Source of the DNA: an uncultured Prevotella sp.
GTDB lineage: Bacteria; Bacteroidota; Bacteroidia; Bacteroidales; Bacteroidaceae
DNA: 64,000 nucleotides
Direction: 5' to 3'
Assembly (NCBI GenBank): GCA_905236755.1
Contig: CAJOCR010000013.1
Location: 1-64,000, forward strand
The translations under genes were made by a program, and so were the position numbers. Below the pieces are notes generated by a model. The model ran no database searches, was not told the DNA's origin, and worked only from the letters and a program-made list of their open reading frames with translations. Below are positions 18,880 through 54,871 of this stretch, piece by piece; position 1 is the stretch's first letter, and every line of letters starts with the position of its first letter.

Positions 18880-21357
18880 ATGAAAAAGTATAATATACTA
18901 TCGTCACTCTTTATAGCTGCTGTATTCGGCGGCTGTGTTTCAGACTATGAGCCTAACTATACAGGTGCGTTGTCAGACAAAGAAATTTCATTCAAGGTAA
19001 CTACTGCTACCCCTGGTACTACAGAAGTAACACCAGTAGGGCAGGAGGGACGTGCTGATTATTCAACAGTACAGGAAGGCTTCCTTGATCCTATCAAGGC
19101 AGTATCAGATTATCCAAAGCCAATGTATCTGCATACATTGATTTCGTCTGTTCCTGACACATCAGCACAGGCTTCAAGAGCAACACAATACACTGCTGCT
19201 TCTGATATCACAAACTTTGGTGTTCTTGCTTACAGATATGCATCTACAGGCTCTGCCACAACACCAAACTTCCTATATAACTCAGAGTTCCAAAAGAATG
19301 GAACAAAGTGGTCATCAGTAAACAAATACTATTGGCCTGTAAACAGCGATAAGCTTGATTTTTATGCTTATGCGCCATATAATAATGCAAATATCACACT
19401 TTCTTCTGAAAGTACCTCAGGTGTTCCTACAATGGAGTTTGTGGTTAATCCTGATGCAAGTCTGCAGGTTGACCTCGTTACAGCTAAGGCCTTAACACAA
19501 GACCTTAGTGCTGCAAACACAGGTGTGCCTCTTACATTCAATCATCACCTCACAACAGTTAAGTTTGTTCTTGGTGAAGATATGTTAGGTACAGTTGAAA
19601 CCATTACTTTCAAGAATATCTATACAGCTGGTAAACTCACATTTGCTGGCACATGGGATTTCACGGGTAAGACTCGTGGAGATTTCACAGTTCCTTACAA
19701 CACAAATACACTTTTGATGCCACAGAATTTCTCTGACCAGGCACAGAAAATAGAAGTTGTGTATAACGATGGATACCAAAGATATACTTTAGTATATAAT
19801 CTTCAGGGAACATCATGGACAGCAGGCAAGGCAGTAACATATTGCATTAACTCTTCTGCTGTAACCGAGCTGAAGTTAGGTTCTATCACATTCGCAACAG
19901 GTCTTTCTGAACTTCCTAAGACAGCATGGGCTAATGGCGATGCTGTAGGCCTCTATGCCGTAGAATCTGCTACAGGTACAGTAAAATATACTAACGTAAG
20001 ATTAACATACTCAACTTCCACCGGTAAATGGAGCCTTCCAGAAAATACCAAGATCGTTTACACTCCAAAGTATGAGTATTACGTATATTATCCATATTCT
20101 ACAAATGGATTAGCTCACACTGCAACTGCAGGTGCTAAGATGAACTCCCGTGCAGCAGCCTCTACATCTGCACAGTTCTTTGCAACAGGTATTTCTAATT
20201 GGACTATCCCCACCGACCAAACCGCTTTAGCCACAATTAACAATACCGACTTGCAAACATCAAGAGGAACAGTATCTGCATCTGATGCTGCAACGCTAAG
20301 TTTCACTATGGCTCATGAAATGGCTGCTTACCGAATCACATTAGGTTCAAAGAGTATTCCTTTTACACGTACATATGTCGCAAACAGTAATACCGATTAT
20401 TCTGATAGTGGTAACAAAACCGTAAAGGCAGCAGCCAACTTCAATGGTGGCGGTATAAAGCCATACTACAAGGGTACTGGCGACTATTACTACGCATTTA
20501 TCAAGCCTGCTAACACCTCCCAGCAGTTCAAATGTGCATCAGGAATCGCTAACGGTTGGGCTAACCATCCTGTTACCACCGCATCCACCGCAAAGGGTAT
20601 AATGGGCGGCGCAACCGTACAAAGTGACTCCACCGTAATCTTCATGGCAAGGGCGTACAGTTACACGGGAAATGTACAAACGTTCACGGCACCTTGTGCT
20701 ACAAGTTATAAGTTGGAAGTATGGGGGGCAGAAGGGTCCTTGTATCATGGTAGAATAGTTTCAGGAGAACACCTTGCAGGCAAAGGAGGATATGCTAAAG
20801 GATATCGATATACAGAAGCTAACAATAATTTATATATATGTGTTGGAGGGCAAGGTAGAGTGTCGTCTGGTTATACTAGTAATGATAATTATAACACAGG
20901 AGGATATAACGGAGGAGGGTATGGGCAATATGGTGGCGGTGGCGCAACTCATATTGCAACTACAAATAGAGGTATTTTAAAGAGTTATGCCAGCTATAAG
21001 AGCGAGGTTCTTATTGTTGCAGGAGGTGGTGGGGGATATGATGGAAATGCAGCTGGTGATGGAGGTGGAGAAAAAGGTGGAGATTCTGGTGGTATAGCAA
21101 AGGGAGGAACTCAAACTTCAGGTGGTAGTGGGGGAACTCCTGGTTCTTTTGGAAAAGGTGGAAATGCAACAAATACTTCTGATGATTCATGTGGCGCTGG
21201 TGGCGGTGGTTGGTATGGCGGTGGTTCTTCAGAAGGAAGTGGCGGATCTGGAGCAGGAGGCTCGGGTTATATAGGAGGAGTTTCTAATGGTACTATGCAG
21301 AATGGTTTGAGATTAAACAGTGGATACTGTATTATAACTTGGCAACAAATTCCATAA
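18880..21357 (+). CDS. variable pilus-associated adhesin: fimbrillin-like N-part with switchable glycine-rich C-domain (expressed cassette C0)
   Basis: An 825-residue lipoprotein with lipobox FGGC (Cys19). Residues about 90-335 and about 340-590 form two fimbrillin-like domains (SRATQYTAASDITNFGVLAY; LYAVESATGTVKYTNV). Residues 595-825 form a glycine-rich domain with this order: YTGNVQTFTAP, YKLEVWGAEG, GGYAKG, LYICVGGQG, GGYNGGG, GGGATHIA, VLIVAGGGGG, GAGGGGWYGGG, GSGYIGG, ITWQQIP. This resembles the ALK/LTK-type or Gly_rich_2 domains that fold into poly-glycine II helices. The junction codes through ACACGGGAAATGT at 20663-20675. It is the only cassette joined to an N-terminal part and a signal peptide, so it is the expression site. 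Confidence 0.85.
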   Translation: MKKYNILSSLFIAAVFGGCVSDYEPNYTGALSDKEISFKVTTATPGTTEVTPVGQEGRADYSTVQEGFLDPIKAVSDYPKPMYLHTLISSVPDTSAQASRATQYTAASDITNFGVLAYRYASTGSATTPNFLYNSEFQKNGTKWSSVNKYYWPVNSDKLDFYAYAPYNNANITLSSESTSGVPTMEFVVNPDASLQVDLVTAKALTQDLSAANTGVPLTFNHHLTTVKFVLGEDMLGTVETITFKNIYTAGKLTFAGTWDFTGKTRGDFTVPYNTNTLLMPQNFSDQAQKIEVVYNDGYQRYTLVYNLQGTSWTAGKAVTYCINSSAVTELKLGSITFATGLSELPKTAWANGDAVGLYAVESATGTVKYTNVRLTYSTSTGKWSLPENTKIVYTPKYEYYVYYPYSTNGLAHTATAGAKMNSRAAASTSAQFFATGISNWTIPTDQTALATINNTDLQTSRGTVSASDAATLSFTMAHEMAAYRITLGSKSIPFTRTYVANSNTDYSDSGNKTVKAAANFNGGGIKPYYKGTGDYYYAFIKPANTSQQFKCASGIANGWANHPVTTASTAKGIMGGATVQSDSTVIFMARAYSYTGNVQTFTAPCATSYKLEVWGAEGSLYHGRIVSGEHLAGKGGYAKGYRYTEANNNLYICVGGQGRVSSGYTSNDNYNTGGYNGGGYGQYGGGGATHIATTNRGILKSYASYKSEVLIVAGGGGGYDGNAAGDGGGEKGGDSGGIAKGGTQTSGGSGGTPGSFGKGGNATNTSDDSCGAGGGGWYGGGSSEGSGGSGAGGSGYIGGVSNGTMQNGLRLNSGYCIITWQQIP
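20663..20675 (+). other. recombination site at the expression locus (head site of C0)
   Basis: ACACGGGAAATGT followed by ACAAACGTTCAC. It is read in frame as Y-TGNVQTFT at codons 595-602. The same element heads all thirty silent cassettes as ACACGGGAA(G/A)TGT, with ACAC/GTGT arms around GGGAA and TGTACA adjoining. Fifteen copies are inverted and fifteen direct relative to this one. Its use as a crossover point is inferred from the sharp loss of similarity upstream of it. Confidence 0.8.
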
Positions 21358-21400
21358 TAGATTCTCACATTATCAGTAAAACAAGCAAAATAATATTGTA

Positions 21401-21465
21401 ACTATGATATTTATCTATCGTAAGTATGATACTAAGCGCTATTAGACATAATACTTATTATACTT
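21401..21465. repeat. convergent-spacer element E
   Basis: An element rich in TATGATA/TATCATA between the 3' ends of convergent cassettes. Relatives lie at 24160-24230, 34165-34230, 43179-43245, 45651-45716 and 50433-50500, and in the opposite orientation at 29591-29660 and 32490-32555. Confidence 0.7.
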
Positions 21466-21485
21466 GTGTTACCTGTATATCAAAC

Positions 21486-21551
21486 ACTCTCATAATTTGC
21501 GTTTTTGCATACAAGTCTCAGTATGTTTTATTTTGCGCAAATTATGAGAGT
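21486..21551. terminator. bidirectional terminator, C0/C1
   Basis: ACTCTCATAATTTGCG (21486-21501) pairs perfectly with 21536-21551. It lies between the convergent ends of C0 and C1. Confidence 0.8.
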
Positions 21552-21557: not shown

Positions 21558-22252
21558 TTATAATACAGGCATCCAAGTTATTAATGCTTTTCCGTTTCCT
21601 GATTGTACACCGTTTTTTGTGGAACCACTGGAAACACCACCTATGTAGCCAGAGCCACCGCCACCTGATCCTCCACCAGCAGTATATGAGGATCCCCCCC
21701 CATACCAGCCGCCGCCACCGCCGCCTGCAGAATCGGCTTGATTATGGGAATTCCCACCTTTTCCAAAAGAACCATTTTGGTATCCACCACCACCTGCAGT
21801 TTGGGTTCCTCCTTTTCCATTTGAATAATTTTGATCTAAATTATAACCATCTTGTCCTACATTTCCACCACCATCTCCACCATGTGAATGCCAATCTGAT
21901 CCTCCACCGCCGCCTGCAACAATCAATACTTCATTTTTGTTATTAACATAATTTGCAAGCATCCCTCTATTGTTTGATATTGCTATATGAGTGGCACCAC
22001 CACCGCCTACTTGTCCTGCTCCTCCTCCATTATACCCACCATTATTTTCATTATAATTACTACCAGTGCCATTATTCTCCGATTTTCCTTTTCCGCCTAC
22101 TGCTATATAAAGGATTAAGGATGATATTAAAGACTTACTTCCACAACAATAACCACCTTTACCAGGACTAAAACCTGTCCCCTCAGCGCCCCACACTTCT
22201 AATTTATATATAGCTGTTGAAGGTGCGGTGAATGTTTGTACACTTCCCGTGT
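21558..22252 (-). CDS. silent glycine-rich cassette C1
   Basis: Head site at 22240-22252 (GGGAAGTGT type). 230 codons are open from the site to the stop, the same length as the expressed C0 domain. The motifs run GKGGYCCGSK, GGATHIAISNNRG, VLIVAGGGGG, GGGGSGYIGG, ITWMPVL. There is a C8 tract at 21694-21701. Inversion between this site and 20663 would flip 1.6 kb and put C1 in frame behind the adhesin N-part. No signal peptide or suitable start is present. Confidence 0.85.
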
Positions 22253-22394: not shown

Positions 22395-23206
22395 ACACGG
22401 GAAATGTACAGACTTTCACAGCACCTTTGAGCACCACTTACAAACTTGAAGTTTGGGGAGCTTCCTCAGGAAAACGCGTGCAAAATGGTATTCTGCAAAA
22501 TTATGCCTATGGCAGAGGGGGATATAGCTATGGTAATTATTCTATGAACAAAAATCAAGCAATATATATAGCCGTCGGAGGAAAAGGTGAAGATGGAAAA
22601 GTTGGTTCAAGAACTACAGGTGGCTGGAATGGTGGTGGTGATGGAGAATGGGATCATGGTGATGATGAATGCATGGGTGCAGGAGGCGGTTGCACATCTA
22701 TTCAGAAAACCTTAAAAAGTGATGGTCGATTAAAATTCTATGAATCAGTAAAGAATTCTGATGTATTAATCGTTGCAGGGGGCGCTGGAGGCGGAAGTGT
22801 TAGTTATGTAGAAGAAGGAAAATTGGTTAATAAATATGGAGGTGGTACTGTTGGCGACATTAGTAGTTACAATATCGACAACGGATTAGAAGTATACGAA
22901 AATAATAAGCAGGCAACTCAAACTTCAGGTTATGCTTTTGGTCAAGGCCAATCAGCGCCTTCTACTATAACAAATAATTCAGAAATTCCAGGAGGCGGGG
23001 GTGGTTGGTATGGTGGATATACTGTTATTCCAACTGTTCATTATACATATGCAACAGCTGGAGGTGGTTCTGGACATATTGGAACAATGCTAACAAATGG
23101 ACAAACAATAGCTGGGAATCAAACCATCCCAAGTCCAAGTGGCGGAACAGAAACAGGACATAGTGGCAATGGCTACTGCAAAATCACTTGGCATCCTTCT
23201 CTATAA
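22395..23206 (+). CDS. silent glycine-rich cassette C2
   Basis: Head site 22395-22407 (AATGT type), then 269 open codons. It belongs to the subfamily with GGGCTSIQ in place of GGATHIA, an aromatic loop TVIPTVHYTYA, GSGHIGTMLTNG and the tail GTETGHSGNGYCKITWHPSL. It is closest to C7 and C13. It runs in tandem with C3. A TTG in frame at 22427 is not a credible start. Confidence 0.85.
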
Positions 23207-23293: not shown

Positions 23294-24147
23294 ACACGGG
23301 AAATGTACAAACATTCACCGCACCTTCTTCCACCACTTACAAGCTTGAAGTATGGGGAGCAGAAGGTGGAAGTTCGAATTGGCATAATGAAGTTACTTTA
23401 TCTGGAGGTAAAGGTGGTTATTCATGTGGAACAAAAAGTATCAATGGAAATTCAACATTATACATAAGTGTTGGTAAATCAGGTATTAGTAATGTTACTT
23501 CTGACGCTTATGTATCTGGCGTCTTCAATGGAGGTGCCGGTTGTAAGGGAACTTTGGTTGGTAGTAATCATCAAATTGATGTAATTACAGGAACAGGTGG
23601 AGGATGTACATCTATACAAACAAGCAAAATAAATGATGGACAACTAAAACATTATGAATCAGTAAAGAATACAGCTGTATTAATTGTTGCTGGAGGAGGT
23701 GGAGGAGCCGTAACTCATAGATACAGTGAATATAATCATCGCTGGTGTGGTACTGGTGGCGCAGGAGGAGGGCTTGCAGGTGTTGTTGGCGAGATTTTTA
23801 ACAAAGGGGAAATAGATGATACTCACCAAAGAAGTTTATTGCCAACTGCAGGAACACAAGATTCGGCAGGAGTGGGATACAATGCCACAACGAACATTGG
23901 AAGTGGTGGTTTTGGATATGGTATGAGCATTAGCGACGGATATCATTCTGCAGGTGGCGGAGGAGGCTGGTATGGCGGTGGCGCATCATATTATGGAGCT
24001 ACTGCAGGTGGTTCTGGTTACATAGGAGGTGTATCAAATGGAAATACCATTGCTGGAAATGAAAGCATGCCTTCTACTTCCGGTGGAACAGAAACGGGGC
24101 ACACGGGTAATGGCTACTGCAAAATCACATGGCATCCTTCTCTATAA
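23294..24147 (+). CDS. silent glycine-rich cassette C3
   Basis: Head site 23294-23306 (AATGT type). 283 codons are open although no usual start occurs in the first 86. Motifs are YKLEVWGAEGGS, GGKGGYSCGT, GGGCTSIQTS, VLIVAGGGGGAV, GGGGGWYGGGASYYG and a mixed tail GSGYIGGVSNGN plus GTETGHTGNGYCKITWHPSL. It looks like a mosaic of the two tail subfamilies. Confidence 0.85.
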
Positions 24148-24351: not shown

Positions 24352-25092
24352 TTATATATTTGGATGCCAGGATATTACGGCATATCCGTGTCCAGAACGT
24401 ACACCAGTTTTAAATTCTCCATTTGTTAATCCACCTATATATCCAGAGCCTCCACCGCCATGCGTTTTAGAATGCACACCGCCACCTCCAGAAGCATTTC
24501 CTCCATACCAACCTCCTCCACCAGCACCAGCTTCCATTTCAGTTGGGCTACCACCAAATCCAAATCCTCCTTTTATTCCATCAGGACCACAACCACTTTG
24601 GGTTCCTCCAGTATCACCTTTGGTGGTAGATGTAGTAACAGTTCCATCACTTTGTTTAAAATAAATTGTTGTTGGGCTCCCTAATCCAACAAGACCACCA
24701 CCAGATTCCCATTTTAAATCATCTTCAGCAGCATTCACTTCCATTAGAACCTGCCCCTCCTGCTACACATATAACAGCAGATTTATTGTTTACGAGATCT
24801 TTTAATAAGCCTGTTGCTGTAGCAATATGAGTAGCACCACCGCCACCGGTATTACTACTAGAGTTTATACCACCTCCATTATAAGATGTACCATCTGTAT
24901 AACGATTACGATCTATACCTTTTCCTCCGACAACAACGTATAGTTTCTGACTTTTTGTTAACGTCTTCCAACCACCAGCATAACCACCAGGAGTATTTCT
25001 ATGACTTCCCCAGCCACCTCCTTGTGCACCCCAGACCTCTAAGTGATAATTCTTAGCCAAAGGTGCGGTGAAAGTCTGTACACTTCCCGTGT
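24352..25092 (-). pseudogene. frameshifted glycine-rich cassette C4
   Basis: Head site 25080-25092. Reading from the site gives YHLEVWGAQGGGW and ends prematurely after CVAGGAGSNGSECC near 24725. The rest (ESGGGLVGLG, GAGGGGWYGG, GSGYIGGLTNG, SWHPNI) continues one frame over from about 24744 to 24352. If brought to the expression site it would give a truncated domain. It may be decay, or a cassette that can be repaired by recombination; a sequencing error cannot be excluded. Confidence 0.75.
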
Positions 25093-25942: not shown

Positions 25943-26865
25943 ACACGGGAAATGTACAGACATTCACCGCACCTTTAAGTGCCACTTATAGGTTAGAATG
26001 CTGGGGTGCACAAGGAGGTGATGCTACATCCAACACCATAGTATTTAAAGGTGGTAGAGGTGGTTATACTTGTGGCTGCATTTCTTTAGATACTTCGTTA
26101 TCACTATATATTTATGTTGGTGAGGCAGGAAGTTATATACCTTCACCAAGTAGTCCAAATATAGCAGATACTGCAGAAAAAGGAGTGACTTATAATGGAG
26201 GTGGAGCAGCACAAAATCACAGCTGTGTGACAGCTACTGGTGGAGGTGCTACTGATGTAAGATTAACAAATGGAAACTGGAACGATTTTAACTCCTTGAA
26301 ATCACGAATTATTGTTGCAGGTGCAGGTGGGGGAGGAAATACGTATAATGGTGCAGGTGATGGCTCTGGAGGATATGCGGGGGGCTTGAACGGAGGAGAC
26401 GGAGCTAAATCATATTTTACAGGAATGTATAATGCAGAAAGTGCTGCAGCAAAAGCTCCATCAAAAGGCGGTACACAAATTTGTGGTGGCGAACTAGTAG
26501 AAGTAGGTGACGTAACAAAAGGTTCCTTTGGTCAGGGCGGTAGTATAGCTAGTGGCGCATATCGTCAAGGAGGTGGTAGTGGATATTATGGTGGTGCAGC
26601 TGGTTCTGCAATTGGTGGAATGGTTTTTTCTGGCGCTGGTGGGTCTTCATTTATTTCAGGTCATACAGGTTGCAATGCTATAAGTTCATCATCGACATCT
26701 ACCAATATTGTTCATACGGGACAACCTAATCACTATAGCGGCTATGTATTCACAAATACAGTTATGAAAGCTGGAAACGAGAGTATGCCATCACCAACGG
26801 GTGGAACAGAAACAGGACACAGTGGCAATGGCTACTGCAAAATTACATGGCATCCTGCTCTATAA
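25943..26865 (+). CDS. silent glycine-rich cassette C5
   Basis: Head site 25943-25955 (AATGT type), then 306 open codons, the longest cassette. It has YRLECWGAQGGD, GGGATDVRLTNGNWNDFNSL, GAGGSSFISGHTGC, then a long tail VFTNTVMKAGNESMPSP plus GTETGHSGNGYCKITWHPAL. The tail is almost identical to that of C19 while the front parts differ, a sign of exchange between cassettes. Confidence 0.85.
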
Positions 26866-26954: not shown

Positions 26955-27691
26955 ACACGGGAAGTGTACAGACTTTCACGGCACCTTCTGCCACTACTTA
27001 TAAGCTTGAAGTGTGGGGAGCACAAGGAGGAAGAGGTATGGTGACAGCACAACCTGATCCTGATTCTCCAGGCGGTCTTGGAGGTTATTCTATGGGTGAA
27101 AAAACGTTATCTTCAAATACCATATTATATGTAGCTATTGGTGGAAAAGGTGCAGATGGAGTTTTAGGTCAGAATGTAAGCGGTGGATGGAATGGAGGTG
27201 GAAATGCATCATGGGACGGAAGTCAAAGTGAACTTTCTGGAAAAACTGGTGAAAGTGGTGCTGGAGGTGGAGGCGCTACGCATATAGCAACCGTTTCAGG
27301 AGTATTATCTTCTTTGTCTTCAAAGAAATCTTCTATTCTTATAGTTGCAGGTGGTGGCGGAGGAGGTAATTGCTGGTATTCAGGTGGTGCAGGTGGAGGA
27401 TTAACAGGTGAAACAGGAAAAGGACAAATTGATGGAGGTTCTGGTGGAACGCAAACTTCAGGATACGCTTTTGGACTAGGACAATCTGGTGTAGGAACAG
27501 GAAATAGTAATGGCGTTTCTGGCGGCGGTGGCGGCTGGTATGGTGGTTTTACAAACGAATCTTCTGGCAAAGAATGTAACACTGGTGGTGGTGGCTCAGG
27601 TTATATTGGTGGCGTTTCCAATGGTTCCACAACTAATGGTGTACAATCAGGACATGGAAAGGCTGTGATTACATGGCATTCAAATGTGTAA
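26955..27691 (+). CDS. silent glycine-rich cassette C6
   Basis: Head site 26955-26967 (AGTGT type), then 244 open codons: YKLEVWGAQGGRG, LYVAIGGKGADG, GGGATHIATVSGVLSSLSS, ILIVAGGGGGGN, GGGGGWYGGFTNESSGKEC, GSGYIGGVSNGS, ITWHSNV. It is tandem to C5 and convergent with C7. Confidence 0.85.
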
Positions 27692-27841: not shown

Positions 27842-28662
27842 TTATAAAGTTGGATGCCAAGTAATTTTGCAGTAGCCATTACCGCTATGCCCAGTTTCTG
27901 TTCCACCCGTTGGGCTTGGCATAGTTGCATTTCCAGCAATAGTTGCTCCATTTGTTAGCATTGTTCCTATATGACCAGAACCACCACCAGCTGCAGCAAA
28001 AGTATATCCAACTGTTGGTATAACTGTATAGCCACCATACCAGCCTCCTCCGCCACCTGGAATTTCCGAGTTCGTTGTTATCGTAGAAGGAGCAGATTGC
28101 CCCAATCCAAAAGCATATCCTGAAGTTTGTGTTGCCTGCTGAGTATATACAGAATTTTCATAATCTTCTCCAATGTCGTACCATGCTTTAGCGCCTGTTT
28201 CACCACCACCATATTGATTTACATGTTTTGCAATTTCTGCGATATGTGTCATATATGGTAATCCTGCGCCACCGCCACCTGCAACGATTAATACTTCAGA
28301 ATTCCTTACAGATTCATAATATCTTAGCTGTCCGTCATTTCTTTTACTTGTTTGAATAGAAGTACATCCTCCTCCTGCTCCCATACATTCATCATCTTGA
28401 TGGTCCCATTCTCCATCACCACCGCCATTCCACCCTCCTGTAGATCTAGATTGATATGTACCGTCTTGCCCTTTGCCACCAACAGATATATAAAGTGCCT
28501 TATTACTATTCATTAGATAATTTCCATAGCTATAGCCTCCTCTGCCATAGCTATCATGATATATACTTCCTCCTTGCATTCGTTTTCCAGAGGCAGCACC
28601 CCATACTTCCAATTTATAATTAGCAGAACAAGGTGCCGTGAAAGTCTGTACACTTCCCGTGT
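27842..28662 (-). CDS. silent glycine-rich cassette C7
   Basis: Head site 28650-28662 (AGTGT type), then 272 codons. Subfamily of C2 and C13: YKLEVWGAASGKR, GGGCTSIQTSKRNDG, TVIPTVGYTFAAAGGGSGHIG, MLTNGATIAGN, GTETGHSGNGYCKITWHPTL. The frame also stays open into the spacer up to an ATG at 28705 (HHFFIFIYTGS), probably by chance. Confidence 0.85.
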
Positions 28663-28805: not shown

Positions 28806-29494
28806 ACACGGGAAATGTACAAGAGTTTTCTACCTCCTATACGACTTCTTACAAGTTAGAGGTGTGGGGAGCTCAAGGTAGTGCTTATGCTCAAGGTATA
28901 GGCGGAAAAGGAGGTTATTCCGTTGGATATTATAATGGGAATGGATTAATGTATGTTTGTGTAGGTGGGAAAGGTACTGCTTATAATGGTGGAGGACATG
29001 AACAGGTTGCAGGTGGAGATGCTAGCCACATAGCCATCAAAAATAACAGAGGAGTGTTAGCTAATTATGTAAATAATAAATCCGAAGTATTAATCGTTGC
29101 CGGCGGAGGCGGCGGAAGTAATGATATTGGAAAAGGCGGTGCTGGAGGAGGTTTGAATGGCGGTGCTGGAGAGCAAGTGGTATATTCTGGTCAAACAATT
29201 GTTGGCGGGACAGGAGGTACACAAACTTCAGGAGGTACTTTTCCGGGAAACATGACAGGACAAGTTATCGTAAGCGGTACTTTCGGAAAGGGAGGAACTG
29301 GTAGAAATAGCGGTGGTGACCCAGGAGGTGCTGGCGGAGGAGGCTGGTATGGCGGCGGTGGAACTCCTTTTTCTGGTTGCGGTGGAGGAGGATCTGGTTA
29401 TGTCAATTCCAGCTTGCTTACAAAAACAAGTATGTCAAGTGGAGTTCGAGAAGGACACGGATATATTCGAATTACTTGGATGCCTGTATTATAA
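28806..29494 (+). CDS. silent glycine-rich cassette C8
   Basis: Head site 28806-28818 (AATGT type), then 228 open codons. The first strand is changed to VQEFSTSYTTS; then YKLEVWGAQGSAY, GGDASHIAIKNNRG, VLIVAGGGGGSN, GGGGWYGGGGTPFSGC, GSGYVNSSLLTK and ITWMPVL. It is convergent with C9. Confidence 0.85.
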
Positions 29495-38780: not shown

Positions 38781-38792
38781 TACAATTAATAC

Positions 38793-43432: not shown

Positions 43433-44190
43433 TTATAGTACTGGCATCCAGGTAATTAGTGCTTTTCCATTACCTGATTGTATTCCGTTTGACATAGAAC
43501 CACTTGAAATTTTGGAAGTGTTAATATGACCAGAACCGCCTCCCCCACATGCATTTGAAGCGTAACCCGTTTTCTGGTTTGAAAAACCAGCATAGTATCC
43601 CCCACCAGCTCCTCCATTACCTTCTCCTCCATGACTTCCTAGTGTTGAAGCTACACCATCTTGCCCTTTTCCTAATGAATAATAATTAGAGCTGCTCCCA
43701 CCTGATGATATTGGGCAACCGTCTCTACCACCCGAATCTTCAGTAAAAGTATTTAAACTATTACCCCCACTAGTTCCTCCTCCAGTACCACCAAAAATAT
43801 AATCCTGCCCCCAAGTAGTGCCACCACCTCCTCCACCACCAACGAGAAGGACAGTGCCCTTAGTAGAAGAATTATTTAATAGTGTATAAAGAGTTCCACT
43901 TGTTGTTGCTATATGTGTGGCTCCGCCACCGCCACCTCCTCCACCATATGGTTCTAAAGCTTTACCTCCATTTCCACCTCCATTATATCCTCCTGTACCT
44001 CCTGTAGATCCAGAATTAATAGCACCTTGACCACCAACACACACATAAAGAGTATTTCCATTGGCATTTGTTATGGTGCCATAAGAATATCCTCCTTTAC
44101 CGCCATTAGGATGTCCTCCTTGTGCCCCCCATACTTCAAGTCTATAATCTTTCGCTAAAGGTGCAGTGAATGTTTGTACACTTCCCGTGT
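43433..44190 (-). CDS. silent glycine-rich cassette C20
   Basis: Head site 44178-44190 (AGTGT type), then 251 open codons: YRLEVWGAQGGHPNGG, LYVCVGGQGAINS, GGGATHIATTSGTLYTLLNN, VLLVGGGGGGGT, GGAGGGYYAGFSNQKTG, GSGHINTSKISSG, ITWMPVL. It has YYAG where most have WYGG. Confidence 0.85.
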
Positions 44191-45835: not shown

Positions 45836-46560
45836 TTATACATTTGGATGCCAAGTAATTACTGCTTTTCCGTTACCAGATTGAACTCCTGTTTGCATGG
45901 TACCATTTGTAACTCCTCCTATATATCCAGAGCCACCTCCACCAGATGCTGACCAATAGATAAATGTTGATCCTCCACCGTACCAACCTCCACCACCTGC
46001 ACCACCTGAATCCATGATGGTCACAGGACCAATAGGTACATCACCACCTTTACCAAAAGTCCCATCATTTCCTCCATTGCCACCAGAATCTTGAGTACCA
46101 CCTTCTCCACTTCGCTCTACATCATCTTTATTTGCTCCATTTGTACCAAAAAATCCTCCACCATCGCCGGCATTTAGCCCCCCATCCTTTGCACCTCCGC
46201 CACCAGCAACAATTAAAACCTCATTTTTATTATTCACATAATTAGCAAGCACCCCCCTATTGTTGGTAATTGCTATATGAGTTGCTCCACCGCCTCCAGC
46301 ACCTCCCCATGAAAACTCCATAACCTGAGCATTTCCTCCGCCATTATATCCACCACAAGAAGATGTTGATGATATATCACGCCCCGCAGTTGGTTTTCCT
46401 TCACCACCTACACAAATAAATAGCTCCTCTTGAGATTCTATATTTTTATATCCACAAGAATGACCTCCTTTACCACCAGCCCCTCCTCCTTGTGCCCCCC
46501 AAACTTCTAAGCGATAATTCTTAGCCAAAGGTGCGGTGAATGTTTGTACATTTCCCGTGT
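45836..46560 (-). CDS. silent glycine-rich cassette C22
   Basis: Head site 46548-46560 (AATGT type), then 240 open codons: YRLEVWGAQGGGAGG, LFICVGGEGKPT, GGGATHIAITNNRG, VLIVAGGGGAKD, GGGGWYGGGSTFIYWSAS, GSGYIGGVTNGT, ITWHPNV. The middle (GGNGGNDGTFGKGGDVPIGP) resembles C23. Confidence 0.85.
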
Positions 46561-46703: not shown

Positions 46704-47446
46704 ACACGGGAAGTGTACAGACTTTCACCGCACCACATGCCACTACATATTATCTAGCAATTTGGGGAAGTGGCAACGTTGGAGGAGGCACAGGAGGATA
46801 TGCCAAAGCGTCTTATACCACCACCAATAATAAAGCACTATACGTCTGTGTAGGAGGACAAGGACGGTCTACTCGTGCAAAAACAGATACAGAGACAACT
46901 GCTTCATGTGGTGGTTATAATGGTGGTGGTAATGCTCAGGTACATAAACGTTCTTGGGGAGGTTGCGGTGGCGGCGGCGCTACACACATAGCAATTACAA
47001 ACAATAGAGGAGTGTTAGCAAATTATGTGAATAATAAATCTGAAATACTTCTCGTTGCTGGTGGCGGTGGAGGCACGGATCATGGTTTAACTCCAGGACA
47101 TGGAGGTGGTACAACTGGAACAGATGGAGGAGACAGTTCATCTAATGCAAATGAAAAAAGTGGTAAAGGAGGTACTCAATCGGCTGGTGGCGCAGGAGGA
47201 AAATCTGGTTCATTTGGTAAGGGGGGTGATATGCCTATCTCCCCAACAGGTGAAAATGATTATGACTCTGGGGGCGCTGGTGGTGGCGGTTGGTATGGAG
47301 GAGGATCTAGCTACTATTATACTGGTGGTGCAGGTGGTGGTGGCTCAGGGTATATAAATACCTCTTTAGTTAAAAATGGATCTATGCAAACAGGAGTTCG
47401 TTCCGGTGATGGCTATGCTGTAATCACTTGGATGCCAGTACTATAA
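46704..47446 (+). CDS. silent glycine-rich cassette C23
   Basis: Head site 46704-46716 (AGTGT type), then 246 open codons, of which the first 102 lack a usual start. YYLAIWGSGNVGGG departs from the EVWGA consensus. LYVCVGGQGRST, GGGATHIAITNNRG, ILLVAGGGGGTD, GGGGWYGGGSSYYY, GSGYINTSLVKNG, ITWMPVL follow. Confidence 0.85.
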
Positions 47447-47521: not shown

Positions 47522-48123
47522 CTATAACGCAGGATGGTATGTAATCTTACAGCTACCATTGCCTCTGTTTGAAGAACCACCGTTGTAAATAGAAGACCAT
47601 CCGCTTCCTACATAATTTGAACCACCTCTTGATTGATAAGTATTGGTTTTACCGCCAGTACCACCATAGTAGCCACCACCTCCGCCACCTCCGTCACTAG
47701 AAGAAGAACCATTAGCTAATACGCCATTATTTCCTGATCCACTTACGCCACCATTTCCTGCTCCATTAACAGAATATCCTCCACCTCCGCCACCACCAGC
47801 AACAAGTTGTCTGTTGGAAATATTTGTACCACTAATTCTTATATCGGTTGCACCACCGCCACCACCAGCAGTTCCTGTTCCCGTATATCCACCGCCACCA
47901 TTCCAGCCACCTGTAGATGATCCTTTTTGGTTATCTGGCCCCTTTCCTCCAACATAAATATTTAATACTGTCCCAGAGTTAATGCTCTTCTTTGCATTTA
48001 CTCTTCCACCTGTTCCTCCCTTGCCGATATTTGCGTCACTATCATAACCACCACCTGCTCCATATATATCTACAATATAAGTTGTAGTAGTAGGGGTTGT
48101 AAATGTCTGTACCTTTCCCGTGT
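47522..48123 (-). CDS. silent glycine-rich cassette C24 with no start codon at all
   Basis: Head site 48111-48123 is the variant ACACGGGAAAGGT (TGKVQ). 199 codons are open to TAG at 47522, with no ATG, GTG or TTG in frame. Motifs: TFTTPTTTTYIVDIYGAGGG, LNIYVGGKGPD, GGGATDIRISGTNIS, LVAGGGGGGG, GGGGGGGYYGGTGG, ITYHPAL. It is the shortest and most divergent cassette. It can only be translated after joining to the adhesin N-part. Confidence 0.8.
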
Positions 48124-48234: not shown

Positions 48235-49440
48235 CTAATATAATAAGCCAAACATCCAAAGCGGAATTTTATTTCCAACACCTATTTCCATATTGTCTAT
48301 TGCAAGAAAACTATTTGGTTCATCTTTGATCTGTTCAAATGTCTTGTATGTACCACCTACTTCAAACAAGTATTTTCCATTAATTAAAAAATCCCCTTTT
48401 ACAGCTGTTTGTACTTGAGAGACTTGCTGCATTTGATTATTAAAGAAAGTCTCTCTTCTATTGCCTTCATTAGTAGAACTTGCTAATGCAGACATGAGAT
48501 TGGTATTGGAAAGGTAGATTTTCTCAGGCGTAACCAAGTGCTTATAACTTTTTAGTTCGCGTGTAAGGAGAGAAAGAATGTGTGCTTTATCAAGAGTGTA
48601 TAGCATTTTTATACATACATCTCTTGTTGACGAAAGAGAATTTGTCAGCTTATTCACATTAGGAACAAGTGGAACGTTCTGAGCAATGATTGCCAACAAT
48701 CTTTTTGTTTTCTCAACGGTCGCATAAGTAACATTTTCCACTGCAGGCATATCTGATTCTATTGCAAGGGTAGCCGTCGCGGCTAAGCGCATTAAAAAAT
48801 CCTCATGCGCTTCTACAAAGAAAGGATAACATCCATGTTCTAGGTAATCATTAAAATATTTCAATATCTTGATTCTGCTTGTGATATCCATTGCTAACTT
48901 TACATGATTGCTTAGCAGTTCTTCCAACGTTATTATAGGGATATGAATATTACATGCAAACTCTATATATTCACGGAACGACATCTCGGGGAGAGTATAT
49001 AAGGATTGTCTTCTAGATAGATCAATTTTTGAATTATCAATTTCAAGCATTGATGATCCCGTATATACAATATTTAAATCTGGATAACTATCATATATAT
49101 TTTTAAGTAACTGTGTCCAGCCCTTATATTTATGTACTTCATCTAGAAATATTGTTGAGATTCCATGGGTATATAAATATTCTATTAATTCAGAAAGACT
49201 ATTGTTCTGAAACCACAGATTATCCAAAGAAACCCATAATGTATCATCAGGATTACTAAATGTTTCCTTAATATGCTGAAGTATTAGCGTTGTTTTTCCT
49301 GCTCCACGTGGTCCTTTAATCCCAATGAGTCTTACATTCCAATTAATTTGTGTATGTAAGAATCTCTTAAAGTCCAAATTAGTCGCAGCTAATCTTCTAT
49401 GATAAATATTTATCAATGGTAGAATATCAACTTGTTCCAT
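48235..49440 (-). CDS. AAA ATPase (AAA_14/DUF4143 type)
   Basis: A 401-residue predicted ATPase of the AAA_14 plus DUF4143 type, common in Bacteroidetes and of unknown role. The P-loop GIKGPRGAGKTTLI is near residue 40, Walker B STIFLDEVHKYKGW near 95, and VYTGSSMLEID near 123. From about 230 the DUF4143 part has LTNSLSSTRDVCIKMLYTLDKAHIL and KGDFLINGKYLFEVGG, with a PD-(D/E)XK-like look. It occupies the head spacer between C24 and C25. Palindromes upstream suggest autoregulation. Confidence 0.85.
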   Translation of the reverse strand: MEQVDILPLINIYHRRLAATNLDFKRFLHTQINWNVRLIGIKGPRGAGKTTLILQHIKETFSNPDDTLWVSLDNLWFQNNSLSELIEYLYTHGISTIFLDEVHKYKGWTQLLKNIYDSYPDLNIVYTGSSMLEIDNSKIDLSRRQSLYTLPEMSFREYIEFACNIHIPIITLEELLSNHVKLAMDITSRIKILKYFNDYLEHGCYPFFVEAHEDFLMRLAATATLAIESDMPAVENVTYATVEKTKRLLAIIAQNVPLVPNVNKLTNSLSSTRDVCIKMLYTLDKAHILSLLTRELKSYKHLVTPEKIYLSNTNLMSALASSTNEGNRRETFFNNQMQQVSQVQTAVKGDFLINGKYLFEVGGTYKTFEQIKDEPNSFLAIDNMEIGVGNKIPLWMFGLLY

Positions 49441-49674: not shown

Positions 49675-50366
49675 ACACGGGAAGTGTACAGACTTTTACA
49701 GCACCTTCTGCCACTACATACAAACTTGAGGTATGGGGAGCACAAGGAGGTTCTAATGGTTTTCCGGGCAAAGGTGGTTATAGTTGTGGTAATAAGTCTT
49801 TAGAATCATCCATAACACTTTATATAGTTGTAGGTGGAAAAGGGACAAGTGGTAGTGATAATAGTTATCATGAAAAGAGTGGTGGATATAATGGAGGTGG
49901 TACAGGCCAAATGGGAGGTGGTGGTGCCACTCATATAGCAATTTCCAACAATAGAGGGGTGCTTGCTAATTATGTGAATAATAAAAATGAAGTATTGCTT
50001 GTTGCAGGTGGTGGCGGTGGAGCAGATGCTAATTCACATGGTGGAGATGGAGGTGGAAATGTAGGACAAGATGCTTATAATTTAAATGGTAGTACTTATT
50101 CAAATGGAAAAGGAGGAACACAAACTGCTGGTGGTGGTGGATATCAAAATGGTTCTTTTGGGAAAGGTGGAGATGCCAGAATTCAATCAAATTCAGAAGG
50201 CGCAGGCGGAGGAGGCTGGTATGGTGGTGGTTCCTCATATACTTCTACCGATGGGTCAGGCGGAGGCGGATCCGGCTATATAGGTGGAATTTTGAATGGC
50301 TCAACTACAGCAGGAGTTCAATCTGGTGATGGTAAAGCATTAATCACTTGGATGCCAGTACTATAA
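49675..50366 (+). CDS. silent glycine-rich cassette C25
   Basis: Head site 49675-49687 (AGTGT type), then 229 open codons: YKLEVWGAQGGSNG, LYIVVGGKGTSG, GGGATHIAISNNRG, VLLVAGGGGGADANS, GGGGWYGGGSSYTS, GSGYIGGILNGS, ITWMPVL. It is a close sibling of C1 and C12 (KGGTQTAGGGGYQNGSFGKG). Confidence 0.85.
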
Positions 50367-50601: not shown

Positions 50602-51464
50602 TTATAATGCAGGATGCCAAGAAATAACAGCCTTTCCATTTCCTGATAGTATACCATTCTGCATAAATCCATTTGATACACCTCCAGTATATCCAGATCC
50701 TCCACCTGCACCTAGTCCCCAACTGGAGCCACCGCCATACCAGCCGCCCCCACCACCTGCAATCTGTTTATTGCCACAGTTGGCTGTCCCACTCCATCCC
50801 TTTCCAAAATCAGCGTTAGTATATACTGCATTATTTGGAAGAGATGCTTTATCAGTCCCTAGGTTTACGTTCTCACCTGCATAGTTATAACCACCTCCCA
50901 TATTAGAAACATTAATATTTTGTTGTATTTCATGTTGATTTGGAGCGGCTGTAGGATTTCCACCTGTTGTTCCACCGCCAGAGCCTCCTCTATTCACACC
51001 ATACCATGTATCATATTCGCGTGTATCAAGCAAATTATCTGTAGAGCCACCTCCTCCACCAGCCACAATTACTACTTCATTTTTATAATTTTTGTAATTT
51101 GATAATACACCACGATTATTAGATTTGCTTATATGAGTAGCACCACCACCGCCTGATACAATAAATTCATGCTGATCATATGAAAGATATGCTGTACCTC
51201 CACCATTATATCCTCCAGCTATTGTTTTTTCACTTCCACTTACCATAGGTGTTCTGTTATCTCCACCCTTTCCGCCTATGCAAACATATAAGTTAGCGCC
51301 AGCAGACAAATTTTGTATTATTCCATAAGAATATCCACCTAGCCCGCCTGTTGAAGTATATGCAGCCGAAGTAGAATGACCTACAGAACCACCTGCGGCC
51401 CCCCAAACTTCAAGCACATAATTTGCGTTTAGAGGTGCGGTAAACGTTTGTACATTTCCCGTGT
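50602..51464 (-). CDS. silent glycine-rich cassette C26
   Basis: Head site 51452-51464 (AATGT type), then 286 codons: YVLEVWGAAGGSVGH, LYVCIGGKGGDN, GGGATHISKSNNRG, VVIVAGGGGGSTDNLLDTRE, GGGGGWYGGGSSWG, GSGYTGGVSNG, ISWHPAL. It has a long Asn/Gln-rich loop (APNQHEIQQNINVSN). The frame also continues into the spacer to 51525. Confidence 0.85.
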
Positions 51465-51601: not shown

Positions 51602-52392
51602 ACACGGGAAATGTACAGACTTTTACAGCCTCTTCTACAGCTATACATAAATTAGAAGTGTGGGGCGCAAGTGGTGGTAAGTCTCGCTTGCAAGGTGCAT
51701 TAAAAACAGGATATGCTGGAGGAGGATACTCTGTAGGTAATATATCGTTATCCATCAATAATTATTTATATATTGCTGTTGGAGGAAAAGGAACTGATGG
51801 TCAAGTTGGTAAAAATGCAAATGGAGGATGGAATGGTGGTGGTGCTTCTTCTTGGGATTATTCAGATGACGAAGTTGCTGGTTCTGGAGGAGGGTGTACT
51901 TCCATAACATCAACGAAAAGAAGTGATGGACAATTGAAAAACTATTCTTCAGTTAAAACAACAGAGGTATTAATTGTTGCCGGTGGTGGAGGCGGTGTAT
52001 CATGGACATCAAATATCCATTCTGGTCCATATGGATATGGAGGGGGAATCTCTGGAGGAGCGACACATAATACTTCAAAGGTTGCTAATCAATCTTCTGG
52101 GTATTCTTTTGGACTTGGGCAAAGTTATTCTGATACAGGTAAAAATTATACGGGACAAACAATTGGTATTCCTGGTGGTGGAGGAGGATACTATGGAGGT
52201 TATTGTGATTTAAGTGAAGGACAAAAGATAGAGAACAGTTCATGTGCAGGTGGCGGTTCTGGTTATATTGGAGGAGTTACAAACGGAAGTACTATTGCAG
52301 GAAATGAAACTATGCCTTCTACTTCTGACGGCACCGAAACAGGACACAGCGGTGACGGCTATTGCAAAATTACATGGCATCCTGCATTATAA
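51602..52392 (+). CDS. silent glycine-rich cassette C27
   Basis: Head site 51602-51614 (AATGT type), then 262 open codons: VQTFTASSTAIHKLEVWGAS, LYIAVGGKGTDG, GGGCTSITSTKRSDG, VLIVAGGGGGVSW, GGGGGYYGGYCDLSEG, GSGYIGGVTNGS, GTETGHSGDGYCKITWHPAL. Confidence 0.85.
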
Positions 52393-52432: not shown

Positions 52433-53145
52433 TTATATTACTGGCATCCAAGTGATAAGAGCTTTTCCATTACCTGATTGAACACCGTTAGTTGTGATGC
52501 CATTTGAAACGCCACCTATATAGCCAGATCCTCCACCAGCGGAACTACCATATGTAATAGCAGTTCCACCACCATAATAGCCACCACCGCCACCACTTCC
52601 CATTCCGCCAGAAGATGAACTTCCACCTATTCCAAAATCGCCACCATTTCCTGCACTTGTTTGAGTACCTCCATAAGCGATTTCTGTACCATTACCATTA
52701 CTTCCATTAGTACCTCCACCATTTCCACCATTATTTTTATTATGACCTCTACATATTCCTCCACCACCGCCACCGCCAGCAACAATTATAACAGAAGATT
52801 TATTTGTAGAAAGAGAGGATAAAAGGCCTGTTGAGGAAGCTATGTGAGTTGCACCCCCACCGCTTCCCCAAGTAGTATCTCCATTTGCACCTCCTGTTCC
52901 TCCTCCATTATATCCTCCTTTAATAGGTTTACATTCATATTTTGACGAATTTAATCCTGAACCACCAACAACTATATATAGTATAGTTGATACTTTTTGG
53001 GTTCCCATGGAATACCCTCCTTTACCACCAATGTCATATATAGTATTATCTTCTGGTAGATAACCTGTACCTCCTTGCGCTCCCCATACTTCAAGTTTAT
53101 AAACAGTACTTGCAGGCGCCGTAAAAGTTTGTACACTTCCCGTGT
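52433..53145 (-). CDS. silent glycine-rich cassette C28
   Basis: Head site 53133-53145 (AGTGT type), then 236 open codons: YKLEVWGAQGGTGYLPEDN, LYIVVGGSGLN, GGGATHIASSTGLLSSLSTNK, VIIVAGGGGGGG, GGGGGYYGGGTAITYG, GSGYIGGVSNG, ITWMPVI. Confidence 0.85.
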
Positions 53146-53287: not shown

Positions 53288-54006
53288 ACACGGGAAGTGT
53301 ACAGACGTTCACCGCACCTTCTTCCACTACTTATAAGCTTGAAGTTTGGGGAAGTCAAGGCGTAGGCGAAGGTGCCCCTGGTAAAGGAGGGTATTCGTAT
53401 GGAAATATGTCTATTTCAAAAAACAATATATTATATATTTGTGTTGGAGGACAACCATACAATGGCGGCGGTGAGACCCTTAATACTTTGGGAAGGCATG
53501 GTGGTGGCGCTACTCATATTACCATAACTAACAATCGAGGAACTTTAGAAAATTATGTTAATAATAAATCCGAAGTCCTTTTAGTTGCTGGCGGTGGAGG
53601 AGGTGCTGAGTGGTCTGGTGCTGTCGGCGGTTCAGGAGGAGGCTCTTCTGGTGGGAATTCAAATTATGGAGTAAATCTAAAAGGTAATTCAGGATATATC
53701 CAACAAACAGCAGCAACTGGTGGGACACAAACTTCTGGAGGAACTTATGGCACAAATAATAAAACAACCCCAAGTCAAGTAATTGCAGCTACATTTGGGA
53801 AAGGCGGAATTTGTGTTTCCGGTGATTCTGACTATGGTGCTGGTGGCGGTGGCGGCTGGTATGGAGGAGGTGGCAGTGTATATGTTGGTGGTGGTGGCGG
53901 TGGTTCTGGTCATATTAATACAGATAGAATTACAAATGGCTCTATGCAATCAGGTGTAAGAGAAGGAACGGGTTATGCAAAAATTACCTGGATGCCTGTG
54001 CTATAA
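53288..54006 (+). CDS. silent glycine-rich cassette C29
   Basis: Head site 53288-53300 (AGTGT type), then 238 open codons: YKLEVWGSQGVGEG, LYICVGGQPYNGGG, GGGATHITITNNRG, VLLVAGGGGGAEW, GGGGGWYGGGGSVY, GSGHINTDRITNGS, ITWMPVL. Confidence 0.85.
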
Positions 54007-54037
54007 AACTAAATGAACTATTATACTGTTTAATAAG

Positions 54038-54074
54038 AATAGGCTATAACAACGAGTTGTTGATATAGCCTATT
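54038..54074. terminator. bidirectional terminator, C29/C30
   Basis: AATAGGCTATA pairs with TATAGCCTATT (ending at 54074), with a short mismatch near the loop. Confidence 0.8.
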
Positions 54075-54077
54075 ACT

Positions 54078-54871
54078 TTATAACGCTGGATGATAAGTGA
54101 TTATCGCATAACCATTTCCTAATCTAAGTCCATTAGTCATACTTCCATTTGAGATACGAGAAGTATTAATATGACCAGAGCCGCCACCACCAGAACCATT
54201 ATTGCCATCTTTTGAAACACTACATGCATAGCCACCATACCAGCCTCCGCCACCGCCGCCATCTCCTTCACCAATACCTGATCCAAAAGCTGTTGGTTCA
54301 TCTAAAGCATTTGCTCCTTGCCCAAAGGCATACCCTGTGGTTTGTGTTCCACCAGCATACTGACTACTTCCACCTGCTTCCCCGCCACCAGAATAAGCTG
54401 TACTATTATTTGTAAGAACAACGGCGTCACTACAACCACCTCCGCCACCTGCAACAAGTAAAATTTCAGATGTATTTGAATAATAATTTTTTAATACTCC
54501 TCTATTGGTAGTGATTGCAATATGTGTAGCTCCTCCGCCACCTCCACCACCACGTAGATATGTATGATTTGATCCATAGCTTTTGGCAGCATTTCCTCCT
54601 TTTCCACCACCATTATATCCTCCTGCTCCACCACGTGGTACATATGAAGAGGTATATCCGTCAGTAGGAGCGGTTTCACCTTTGCTACCAACACAAACAT
54701 AAATTTTGTTGTTCTTTGATAAAGAGATATAACCAATTGCATAACCGCCTAATGCACCATGGGCATTAGTATTAGTACTACCACGTCCTCCTTTACCTCC
54801 TTCTGCGCCCCACACTTCTAATTTGTGTGATGTTGTTGAAGTAACAGTAAACTCCTGTACATTTCCCGTGT
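54078..54871 (-). CDS. silent glycine-rich cassette C30
   Basis: Head site 54859-54871 (AATGT type), then 263 codons: VQEFTVTSTTSHKLEVWGAE, IYVCVGSKGETA, GGGATHIAITTNRG, ILLVAGGGGGCSD, GGGGGWYGGYACSVSKDG, GSGHINTSRISNGS, ITYHPAL. It is the last cassette, pointing back into the array. The frame is open upstream to 54980, outside the conserved part. Confidence 0.85.

What the first reader, a model, noticed from the sequence alone, without database searches (positions are those of the whole stretch)
18880..54871. Giant 31-site shufflon-like array that swaps the glycine-rich domain of a pilus-associated adhesin
Seen: one complete adhesin gene (18880-21357) whose last 230 codons begin at ACACGGGAAATGT, and thirty more open or nearly open copies of that domain, each beginning at the same element. 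Fifteen are on each strand, mostly as convergent pairs. None has a signal peptide. Known: shufflons and Bacteroidales invertons exchange gene ends by inversion between inverted sites. Inferred: inversion between 20663 and any of the fifteen - strand heads fuses another domain in frame, and further inversions make the + strand cassettes available. Shufflons I know have a handful of cassettes; thirty for a poly-glycine domain on a type V pilus adhesin looks new.
Basis: partly seen in the sequence, partly recalled or inferred. Interest (0 to 1): 0.96.

Follow-up and report, generated by a model that had tools for sequence, protein, structure and literature searches.

The report
Thirty-cassette shufflon for a pilus adhesin
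A bacterium related to Prevotella carries one adhesin gene plus thirty spare copies of its glycine-rich end domain, each starting with a nearly identical 16-base DNA tag, and it likely swaps them in by recombinase-driven DNA inversion, which would change what its predicted pilus tip binds.

Summary
There are 31 heads of one 16-bp element (ACACGGGAARTGTACA), 16 on + and 15 on -, and each opens an ALK/LTK-type glycine-rich domain (GRD). All 31 GRDs found in the genome lie here, and 29 of 30 silent ones read open.
Four lines favour site-specific shuffling. (1) Codons at the head are frozen to base 15 and free afterwards. (2) Flanks up to 100% identical lead into cassettes no more alike than other pairs, and whole spacers lie in both orientations. 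(3) Natural alleles with 94-99% identical constant regions carry different GRDs, joined at one codon; two carry a relative of silent cassette 36785-. (4) Site and recombinase occur in the same 3 of 398 genus genomes; one, very likely Segatella albensis, has a second array with about 35 heads.
The mechanism (inversion bringing a new C-terminal domain behind a fixed start) is of a known kind: R64 shufflon, M. pulmonis vsa. New here: the size, the type V pilus setting and the ALK-like module. Inversion itself was not observed; no reads were available.

The parts
6788..9749 (+). three fimbrillin-like (Mfa_like_1) genes of the pilus locus: 6788-7789, 7840-8766, 8790-9749
   Evidence: Pfam
10020..18469 (+). 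further genes of the pilus locus: FimA-like 10020-11270, FimD-tip-like 11392-12609 (below cut-off), 12858-14870 (FISUMP-like, below cut-off), DUF4906-like 14889-15950 (below cut-off), DUF4906/FimA-like 16216-17301 and 17318-18469
   Evidence: Pfam and NCBIfam
18880..21357 (+). the one complete adhesin (825 aa): Mfa-like constant part, C-terminal GRD; the joined form in this assembly
   Evidence: predicted structure of the constant part resembles Bacteroides fimbrial proteins
20663..20678 (+). active head: likely recombination site ACACGGGAARTGTACA (encodes T-G-N/S-V-Q); GTACA-N13-TGTAC inverted repeat around it
21558..22252 (-). silent cassette c01
22395..23206 (+). silent cassette c02
23294..24147 (+). 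silent cassette c03
24725..25092 (-). silent cassette c04, broken (121 codons)
25943..26865 (+). silent cassette c05
26955..27691 (+). silent cassette c06
27842..28662 (-). silent cassette c07
28806..29494 (+). silent cassette c08
29735..30432 (-). silent cassette c09
30522..31324 (-). silent cassette c10
31467..32377 (+). silent cassette c11
32565..33259 (-). silent cassette c12
33373..34151 (+). silent cassette c13
34363..35135 (-). silent cassette c14
35278..35972 (+). silent cassette c15
36067..36797 (-). silent cassette c16; its relative (83% and 81% aa) is the fused domain of natural alleles P0001 and P0002
37269..40134 (.). passenger block inside the array: tRNA-Arg(TCT) 37269-37344 -, HPPK-like 37406-37783 -, glucosaminidase+LysM 37854-38780 +, M64 peptidase 38857-40134 +
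   Evidence: outside the array in G379 and, on its right side, in G255
40555..41363 (+). silent cassette c17
41398..42125 (-). silent cassette c18
42268..43166 (+). silent cassette c19
43433..44190 (-). silent cassette c20; its relative (78% aa) is the fused domain of natural alleles P0004 and P0005
44911..45638 (+). silent cassette c21
45836..46560 (-). silent cassette c22
46704..47446 (+). silent cassette c23
47522..48123 (-). silent cassette c24 (199 codons, head with one base change)
48235..49440 (-). passenger AAA_14 ATPase inside the array
49675..50366 (+). silent cassette c25
50602..51464 (-). silent cassette c26
51602..52392 (+). silent cassette c27
52433..53145 (-). silent cassette c28
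53288..54006 (+). silent cassette c29
54078..54871 (-). silent cassette c30, last head of the array
55765..56940 (-). tyrosine recombinase (391 aa; arm-binding, SAM-like and catalytic domains), the likely shufflon invertase

Best explanation
The locus holds one complete adhesin gene and thirty copies of its C-terminal glycine-rich domain without the constant part, each headed by nearly the same 16-bp DNA element, and it most likely works as a giant shufflon in which the adjacent tyrosine recombinase would invert DNA between the head at 20663 and an opposite head so that another domain is fused in frame to codon 595. Shown directly: the 31 heads, the frozen codons, the open frames, the decoupling of flanks from cassettes at the heads, spacers in both orientations, natural alleles with nearly the same constant region and different domains, and the pairing of site and recombinase in the same genomes. 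Inferred: that this recombinase is the enzyme, that inversion rather than another exchange is the usual event, that the 15 + cassettes become usable after a second inversion (in a simulation all 31 are reachable within two), that the adhesin is the tip of the type V pilus encoded just upstream, and that the GRD is the binding part.
For: Heads: 31 against 0.08 expected. DNA-level constraint: codons ACG, GGA and GTA are 31/31 at the head, while the next codons mix (Q: CAA 12/CAG 19; T: 4 codons). Breakpoints: in the window 11 of 465 head pairs share at least 90% of the 60-bp flank, yet their cassettes are 0.551 identical against 0.540 for the rest (Spearman 0.015, p 0.75); in G379 33 of 528 scored pairs give 0.550 against 0.549, one identical duplicate pair included. 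Spacers of 142-143 bp are 98% identical in the same orientation (35123/53133) and 87-97% identical inverted (22240 v 35123, 42113, 53133; 28650 v 31312). Natural alleles: P0001/P0002 have 99.2% the same 595-aa constant part but a GRD 83%/81% like silent cassette c16; P0004-P0007 and P0009 share 94-98% of the constant part, and except for the P0004/P0005 pair (identical GRD) their GRDs match only 28-52% over partial alignments; P0007 is a partial record. All 9 close alleles join at YTG[NS]VQ. Selection: dN/dS 0.17-0.28 in the 9 similar cassette pairs that I chose (dS 0.6-1.6). Enzyme: recombinase at the array edge in the window and in G379 (70% aa); in the 398-genome genus sample both site and recombinase (E <= 1e-100, at most 4 first-look candidates per genome scored) are found in exactly G000, G255 and G379. 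Fusions by computation: 29 of 31 give 823-901 aa, c24 gives 794 and broken c04 716.
Against: No reads and no second isolate of the same strain, so no inversion was seen. P0001's domain is 83% and not 100% like c16, so it shows cassette exchange within the lineage and not a switch in this clone. P0003's domain has no close match among the 31 (45% at best). The contig break in G150/G255 and the N-run in G379 would also come from any repeat in short-read assembly, and in G150 no GRD is assembled at all. The core-gene block inside the array (36.8-40.5 kb) lies elsewhere in G379 and, on its right side, in G255, so part of the array's layout may be a recent rearrangement or a misjoin. Left flanks of the heads are of several types (18 of 31 with GTA at -8, 9 of 31 ending ATTT), and whether all recombine is unknown. 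Recombinases of 37-45% identity are found in 18 further genomes of a 150-genome genus sample and in G160, all without the site, so family membership alone does not mark this system. The catalytic residues were judged by eye from recalled motifs. That this enzyme acts on this site rests on position and co-occurrence alone.
Confidence: 0.9

Rival explanations
1. Cassettes are exchanged by ordinary homologous recombination or gene conversion (RecA), as with silent pilin copies elsewhere; the conserved heads are only the shared start of homology.
For: Cassettes share conserved stretches, for example C-terminal ends 94% alike over 79 aa between P0008 and c05, so some conversion between cassettes is likely.
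Against: The DNA-level freeze stops at base 15 of the head (third codon positions free after it), too short for efficient RecA exchange (recalled); whole spacers are found inverted and flanks reassort with cassettes with the edge at the head; a recombinase co-occurs with the site.
Confidence: 0.05
2. The same recombinase also excises and inserts cassettes between heads in direct orientation, so that the array grows and is traded like an integron cassette array, with inversion only one of its reactions (this can hold beside the best explanation).
For: Adjacent heads in the same direction exist (22395/23294, 25943/26955, 30420/31312); cassette content differs strongly between species and alleles; identical neighbouring copies in G379 C25.
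Against: 30 cassettes are retained; in this assembly the array encloses core genes that deletions between direct heads would remove, an argument weakened because those genes lie outside the array in relatives; deletion products could not be looked for here.
Confidence: 0.2
3. The array is a relic: shuffling happened in the past but is now inactive, and the copies are a decaying gene family.
For: One cassette (25080-) is broken and one head has a base change; no live switching could be seen here.
Against: 29 of 30 silent cassettes are open, dN/dS 0.17-0.28 in the 9 pairs tested, the recombinase frame is intact, and near-identical constant regions carry different domains.
Confidence: 0.04

Closest known systems
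R64/IncI shufflon (Rci, pilV)
   Same: Several copies of a short site in both orientations, a tyrosine recombinase gene beside them, and exchange of the C-terminal part of a pilus-tip adhesin; core and right arm of the site conserved with a variable left arm (PMC11852207, introduction read).
   Different: R64 has four segments and seven sites on a plasmid and a type IV pilus; here 31 heads over 34 kb of a 134-kb contig, a type V pilus locus, another domain family, and spacers between divergent heads. Sequence kinship of the recombinase to Rci was not tested.
Mycoplasma pulmonis vsa locus (HvsR)
   Same: A fixed 5' part with promoter and start is joined by inversion to 3' ends of silent genes; a tyrosine recombinase is responsible (PMC2268961, passages seen).
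   Different: Fewer genes (seven Vsa proteins implied in the passages seen), another protein family, mollicute host.
Bacteroides fragilis Tsr0667 SusC/SusD shufflon
   Same: Bacteroidales, multi-site shuffling of surface proteins by one invertase (PMC11852207, introduction read).
   Different: Shuffles transporter genes and promoters, not a C-terminal adhesin domain behind a fixed pilin.
Diversity-generating retroelements on Bacteroides type V tip pilins
   Same: Diversifies type V tip pilins, likely their binding domain (PMC12632263, passage citing Macadangdang et al.; that paper is not held).
   Different: Works by mutagenic reverse transcription (recalled); here whole, separately conserved domains are exchanged, and no reverse transcriptase was seen among the 24 of 70 window ORFs scanned with Pfam.
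GRD-adhesin arrays of three genomes of the same genus (G024, G251, G382)
   Same: Mfa-like plus GRD lipoproteins in one array: 15-21 GRD candidates per genome in the first look, 6 of 6 scored matching in each.
   Different: Whole genes with their own start, most preceded by a 23-bp palindrome CTCTTCTCTCGCGGAGAGAAGAG found in those genomes only in one stretch; no ACACGGG site and no match to this recombinase at E <= 1e-30.

Membership tests
shufflon (multi-site inversion system in the R64 sense) | many copies of one short site in both orientations | tested here: met
   31 heads, 16 + and 15 -
shufflon (multi-site inversion system in the R64 sense) | tyrosine recombinase gene beside the array | tested here: met
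   55765-56940, PF00589+PF13102+PF17293; same position and direction in G379
shufflon (multi-site inversion system in the R64 sense) | alternative C-terminal segments join one constant segment in frame | tested here: met
   in-frame fusions by computation; natural alleles with different segments at one junction
shufflon (multi-site inversion system in the R64 sense) | conserved core and right arm, variable left arm | tested here: inconclusive
   met in the window (bases 0-15 conserved, left side variable) but in G379 the left arm AGTACAAAC is well conserved
shufflon (multi-site inversion system in the R64 sense) | recombinase related to Rci | not tested
   NCBIfam matches were mostly to Xer and integron-integrase type models, all below their cut-offs; Rci itself was not compared
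shufflon (multi-site inversion system in the R64 sense) | inversion observed in cells | not testable with these tools
   needs reads or bench work
type V pilus tip adhesin | fimbrillin-fold N-terminal part encoded with other pilins | tested here: met
   Mfa_like_1; Foldseek to Bacteroides fimbrial proteins, best E 2.6e-12, low global TM (0.28 by query); pilin genes upstream
[quoted passage not shown]
   an extra C-terminal domain is present (PF12810); ligand binding is not shown
type V pilus tip adhesin | located at the pilus tip | not testable with these tools
   needs microscopy or fractionation
ALK/LTK glycine-rich domain (PF12810) | profile match above the curated cut-off and same fold | tested here: met
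   31 of 31 above cut-off; AF2 model of one cassette pLDDT 91, Foldseek to ALK/LTK GRD prob 1.00, best E about 1e-8, but TM only about 0.44-0.56 and rmsd 8-11
diversity-generating retroelement | reverse transcriptase with template and variable repeat | tested here: not met
   no reverse transcriptase among the 24 of 70 window ORFs scanned; cassettes differ along their whole length; template repeats were not searched for

The most novel reading that the evidence does not exclude
Prevotella-Segatella lineages keep a combinatorial receptor library: a tyrosine-recombinase shufflon of more than thirty ALK-like polyglycine domains that re-arms a single type V pilus tip, several times larger than the textbook shufflons. 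The same adhesin module has been captured a second time by an unrelated array of whole genes headed by a 23-bp palindrome, so GRD adhesins would be a favourite cargo of independent DNA-shuffling machines.
Probability: 0.6. Interest if true: 0.85.

Novelty: new variant of a known kind. Interest (0 to 1): 0.8.

Why it matters
It would show that Bacteroidota diversify type V pilus tips by cassette inversion as well as by retroelement mutagenesis, on a scale (31 domains on one stalk) that would make clonal populations mixtures of binders. Because the domains are modular, it gives a ready library for asking what type V pili bind. Reads from existing metagenomes could settle it.

Tried and rejected
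Integron-like cassette movement and RecA gene conversion were kept as rivals (see there). A retroelement was rejected for lack of a reverse transcriptase among the scanned ORFs and because whole domains differ. A chance repeat, or conservation of YTG[NS]VQ at protein level alone, was rejected by the codon counts. The MAG contig break at the head looked like a switching signature but was set aside, because a 24-26 base repeat shared by many heads breaks short-read assemblies anyway. A clean inverted-repeat model of the site (GTACA-N13-TGTAC) fits the active head, but 13 of 31 heads lack GTA at -8. A first idea that the core-gene block is held inside the array in relatives too was dropped: in G255 it is followed by 10.5 kb of other genes without the site, and in G379 it lies on other contigs. 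sigma-70-type promoter and terminator scans gave no more than shuffles. The DGR paper is not held. The ten paper searches listed no title or abstract start describing such an array in Prevotella or with a GRD; some lists were cut (10 of 175, 10 of 12, 15 of 28), bodies of most papers were not read, and only open-licence PMC is held. Seen: introduction of PMC11852207 and passages; passages of PMC2268961, PMC12632263, PMC5903667, PMC10939037; abstract and outline of PMC5430464.
Rows dropped: 2 of 31 cassettes (25080-, 48111-) were left out of the GRD alignment. In the G379 decoupling, pairs with N-runs, short pieces or heads near contig ends were skipped (528 of 595 scored). dN/dS was run on 9 chosen similar pairs of the 465. 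34 of 84 available sequences went into the model of the constant part. Genus surveys scored only part of the first-look candidates in some genomes (6 per genome, 4, 40 of 82 for G000).

Full report
What is there. The window carries a type V pilus locus (Mfa_like_1, FimA-like and DUF4906 genes, 6788-18469) that ends in one adhesin gene, 18880-21357. Its first 595 residues are fimbrillin-like (Mfa_like_1 in two stretches; a predicted model, pLDDT 79.5, matches Bacteroides fimbrial proteins in Foldseek, best E 2.6e-12, low global TM). Its last 230 are an ALK/LTK glycine-rich domain (PF12810; predicted model pLDDT 91, Foldseek to human ALK and LTK GRD at probability 1.00, TM about 0.55). From 21558 to 54871 follow 30 more copies of that domain, 15 on each strand, each beginning with the same element. 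The pattern has 31 hits where shuffles give 0.08, and all 31 PF12810 domains found in the 3.0-Mb assembly lie in this array. At 55765-56940, 893 bp past the last head, lies a tyrosine recombinase with arm-binding, SAM-like and catalytic domains.

The head is a DNA element. In frame it reads T-G-N/S-V-Q. The codons ACG, GGA and GTA are used in 31 of 31, though each has synonyms. From the next codon on, synonyms mix: CAA 12 and CAG 19, then four threonine codons. The conserved run is bases 0-15, ACACGGGAARTGTACA, with one exception at 48111. To the left, conservation falls at once. GTA at -8 (18 of 31) makes an inverted repeat GTACA-N13-TGTAC at the active head, but 9 of 31 heads have a left arm ending in ATTT, and 8 of the 9 short divergent spacers have one of each kind at their two ends. 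Conserved core and right arm with a variable left arm is how the R64 sfx site is described (PMC11852207, introduction read), but in G379 the left arm is well conserved, so this likeness is only partial.

Cassettes have been exchanged at that element. I compared the 60 bp before each head and 400 bp of each cassette for all 465 pairs. Eleven pairs share at least 90% of the flank, up to 100%, and their cassettes are 0.551 identical against 0.540 for all others; the rank correlation is 0.015 (p 0.75). In G379, 33 of 528 scored pairs give 0.550 against 0.549. One G379 pair (18784/20291) is identical on both sides, so a duplicate or an assembly artefact. Nine of the 13 spacers between divergent heads are 113-143 bp, and the same spacer occurs in both orientations (94-98% same way among three, 87-91% inverted against a fourth; another pair 97% inverted).

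Nature shows the products. A search of 5.8 billion proteins with the adhesin (7994 candidates scored) gave 83 hits, of which 9 are close alleles. All 9 join at YTG[NS]VQ. The others are more distant, most without a GRD; two distant ones with a GRD (P0034, P0080) do not show this motif. P0001 and P0002 share 99.2% of the constant 595 residues with the window, but their GRD is 83% and 81% like silent minus-strand cassette 36785 and matches the window's own domain only in part (about 53% over 119 residues). P0004-P0007 and P0009 share 94-98% of the constant part; P0004 and P0005 have the same GRD, and the other pairs match only 28-52% over partial alignments (P0007 is a partial record). P0004/P0005 carry a relative (78%) of silent cassette 44178. 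P0003 has a domain with no close match here (45%), so the population repertoire exceeds this array.

The silent copies look maintained. 29 of 30 are open, and 9 similar pairs that I chose show dN/dS 0.17-0.28 (dS 0.6-1.6, near saturation in some), although the silent copies have no fimbrillin part of their own. That is expected if each is expressed from time to time.

The system goes together, and rarely. In the genus sample of 398 genomes, the exact site occurs in three (G000, G255, G379) and the recombinase at E <= 1e-100 in the same three. Weaker recombinases (37-45%) occur without the site. In 301 genomes of the family, over 30 genera, only the window's genome has the site. G379 has 34 exact or 35 looser heads and 38 PF12810 matches (37 over cut-off, some fragments), a 70% identical recombinase in the same place and direction beside the last head, but a constant part only 39% identical. 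G150/G255 is Prevotella sp. UBA4376 by record title; its adhesin contig stops 8 bases after the site and no GRD is assembled, which fits a shuffled array but also any repeat.

Mechanism. Inversion between 20663 (+) and any of the 15 minus heads would fuse that cassette in frame; 14 of 15 give 794-881 aa and the broken one 716. A label simulation shows 240 arrangements after one inversion and all 31 cassettes reachable within two. In this assembly the array also encloses a tRNA-Arg(TCT), with no second near-identical copy seen in this genome (40 of 82 candidates scored), an HPPK-like gene, a glucosaminidase and a peptidase. In G379 the tRNA, glucosaminidase and peptidase lie on other contigs, and in G255 the block runs on into 10.5 kb without the site. 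So it was moved into the array recently in this lineage, or the assembly is misjoined there. If it is real, deletions between direct heads across it would be costly, and an inversion-biased enzyme, as proposed for Rci, would make sense. That is inference.

How it compares. The principle is known: R64-type shufflons swap the C-terminus of a pilus-tip adhesin (PMC11852207), and Mycoplasma pulmonis joins one 5' end to silent vsa 3' ends with a tyrosine recombinase (PMC2268961, passages). Tip pilins of Bacteroides type V pili are also diversified by retroelements (PMC12632263, passage). New, as far as the ten searches named in Tried and rejected show, is the size, the type V pilus host gene and the ALK-like module.

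Limits. No reads, no second isolate of this strain, no enzyme test. The tip position, the ligand and the activity of the recombinase are predicted.

Noticed in passing
L037-L044 (G024, G251, G382): 15-21 GRD candidates per genome (6 scored each), in whole-gene fimbrillin-GRD lipoproteins in tandem, most preceded by the palindrome CTCTTCTCTCGCGGAGAGAAGAG ending about 13-21 bp before the ATG. There are 15, 15 and 25 exact copies, each set in one stretch of its genome; 0 in G000 and G379. In G251 they run 8 - then 7 +, and in G024 a 336-aa ORF that looks like a tyrosine recombinase (my reading) lies beside the array: perhaps a second, promoter-level shuffling system.
   Followed up: partly
37269-40134: tRNA-Arg(TCT), HPPK-like gene, glucosaminidase and M64 peptidase sit inside the array here; outside it in G379 and, on the right side, in G255 contig C144. 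Recent capture or misassembly.
   Followed up: partly
48235-49440: AAA_14 ATPase (weak DUF4143) between cassettes 48111- and 49675+.
   Followed up: no
own contig C13:130488-133085 (L066 6488-9085): Second fimbrial cluster with P0015, 41% like the adhesin's constant part but with another C-terminus (no Pfam match there) and a related copy of that C-terminus just before it (39%).
   Followed up: no
31 heads: Two main classes of left arm (GTA at -8, 18 of 31; ending ATTT, 9 of 31), one of each on 8 of 9 short divergent spacers; their meaning for recombination is unknown.
   Followed up: partly
P0086: Prevotella sp. adhesin on a 3.43-Mb contig ends about 15 residues past the junction: perhaps a fused broken cassette, an OFF state.
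   Followed up: no
L046+L047 (G379 C25) 18784 and 20291: Flank and cassette identical in two neighbouring copies: tandem duplication or assembly artefact.
   Followed up: no
18740-18860: GC-rich repeat-like stretch in the gap before the adhesin gene, by eye similar to one near 55180-55300.
   Followed up: no
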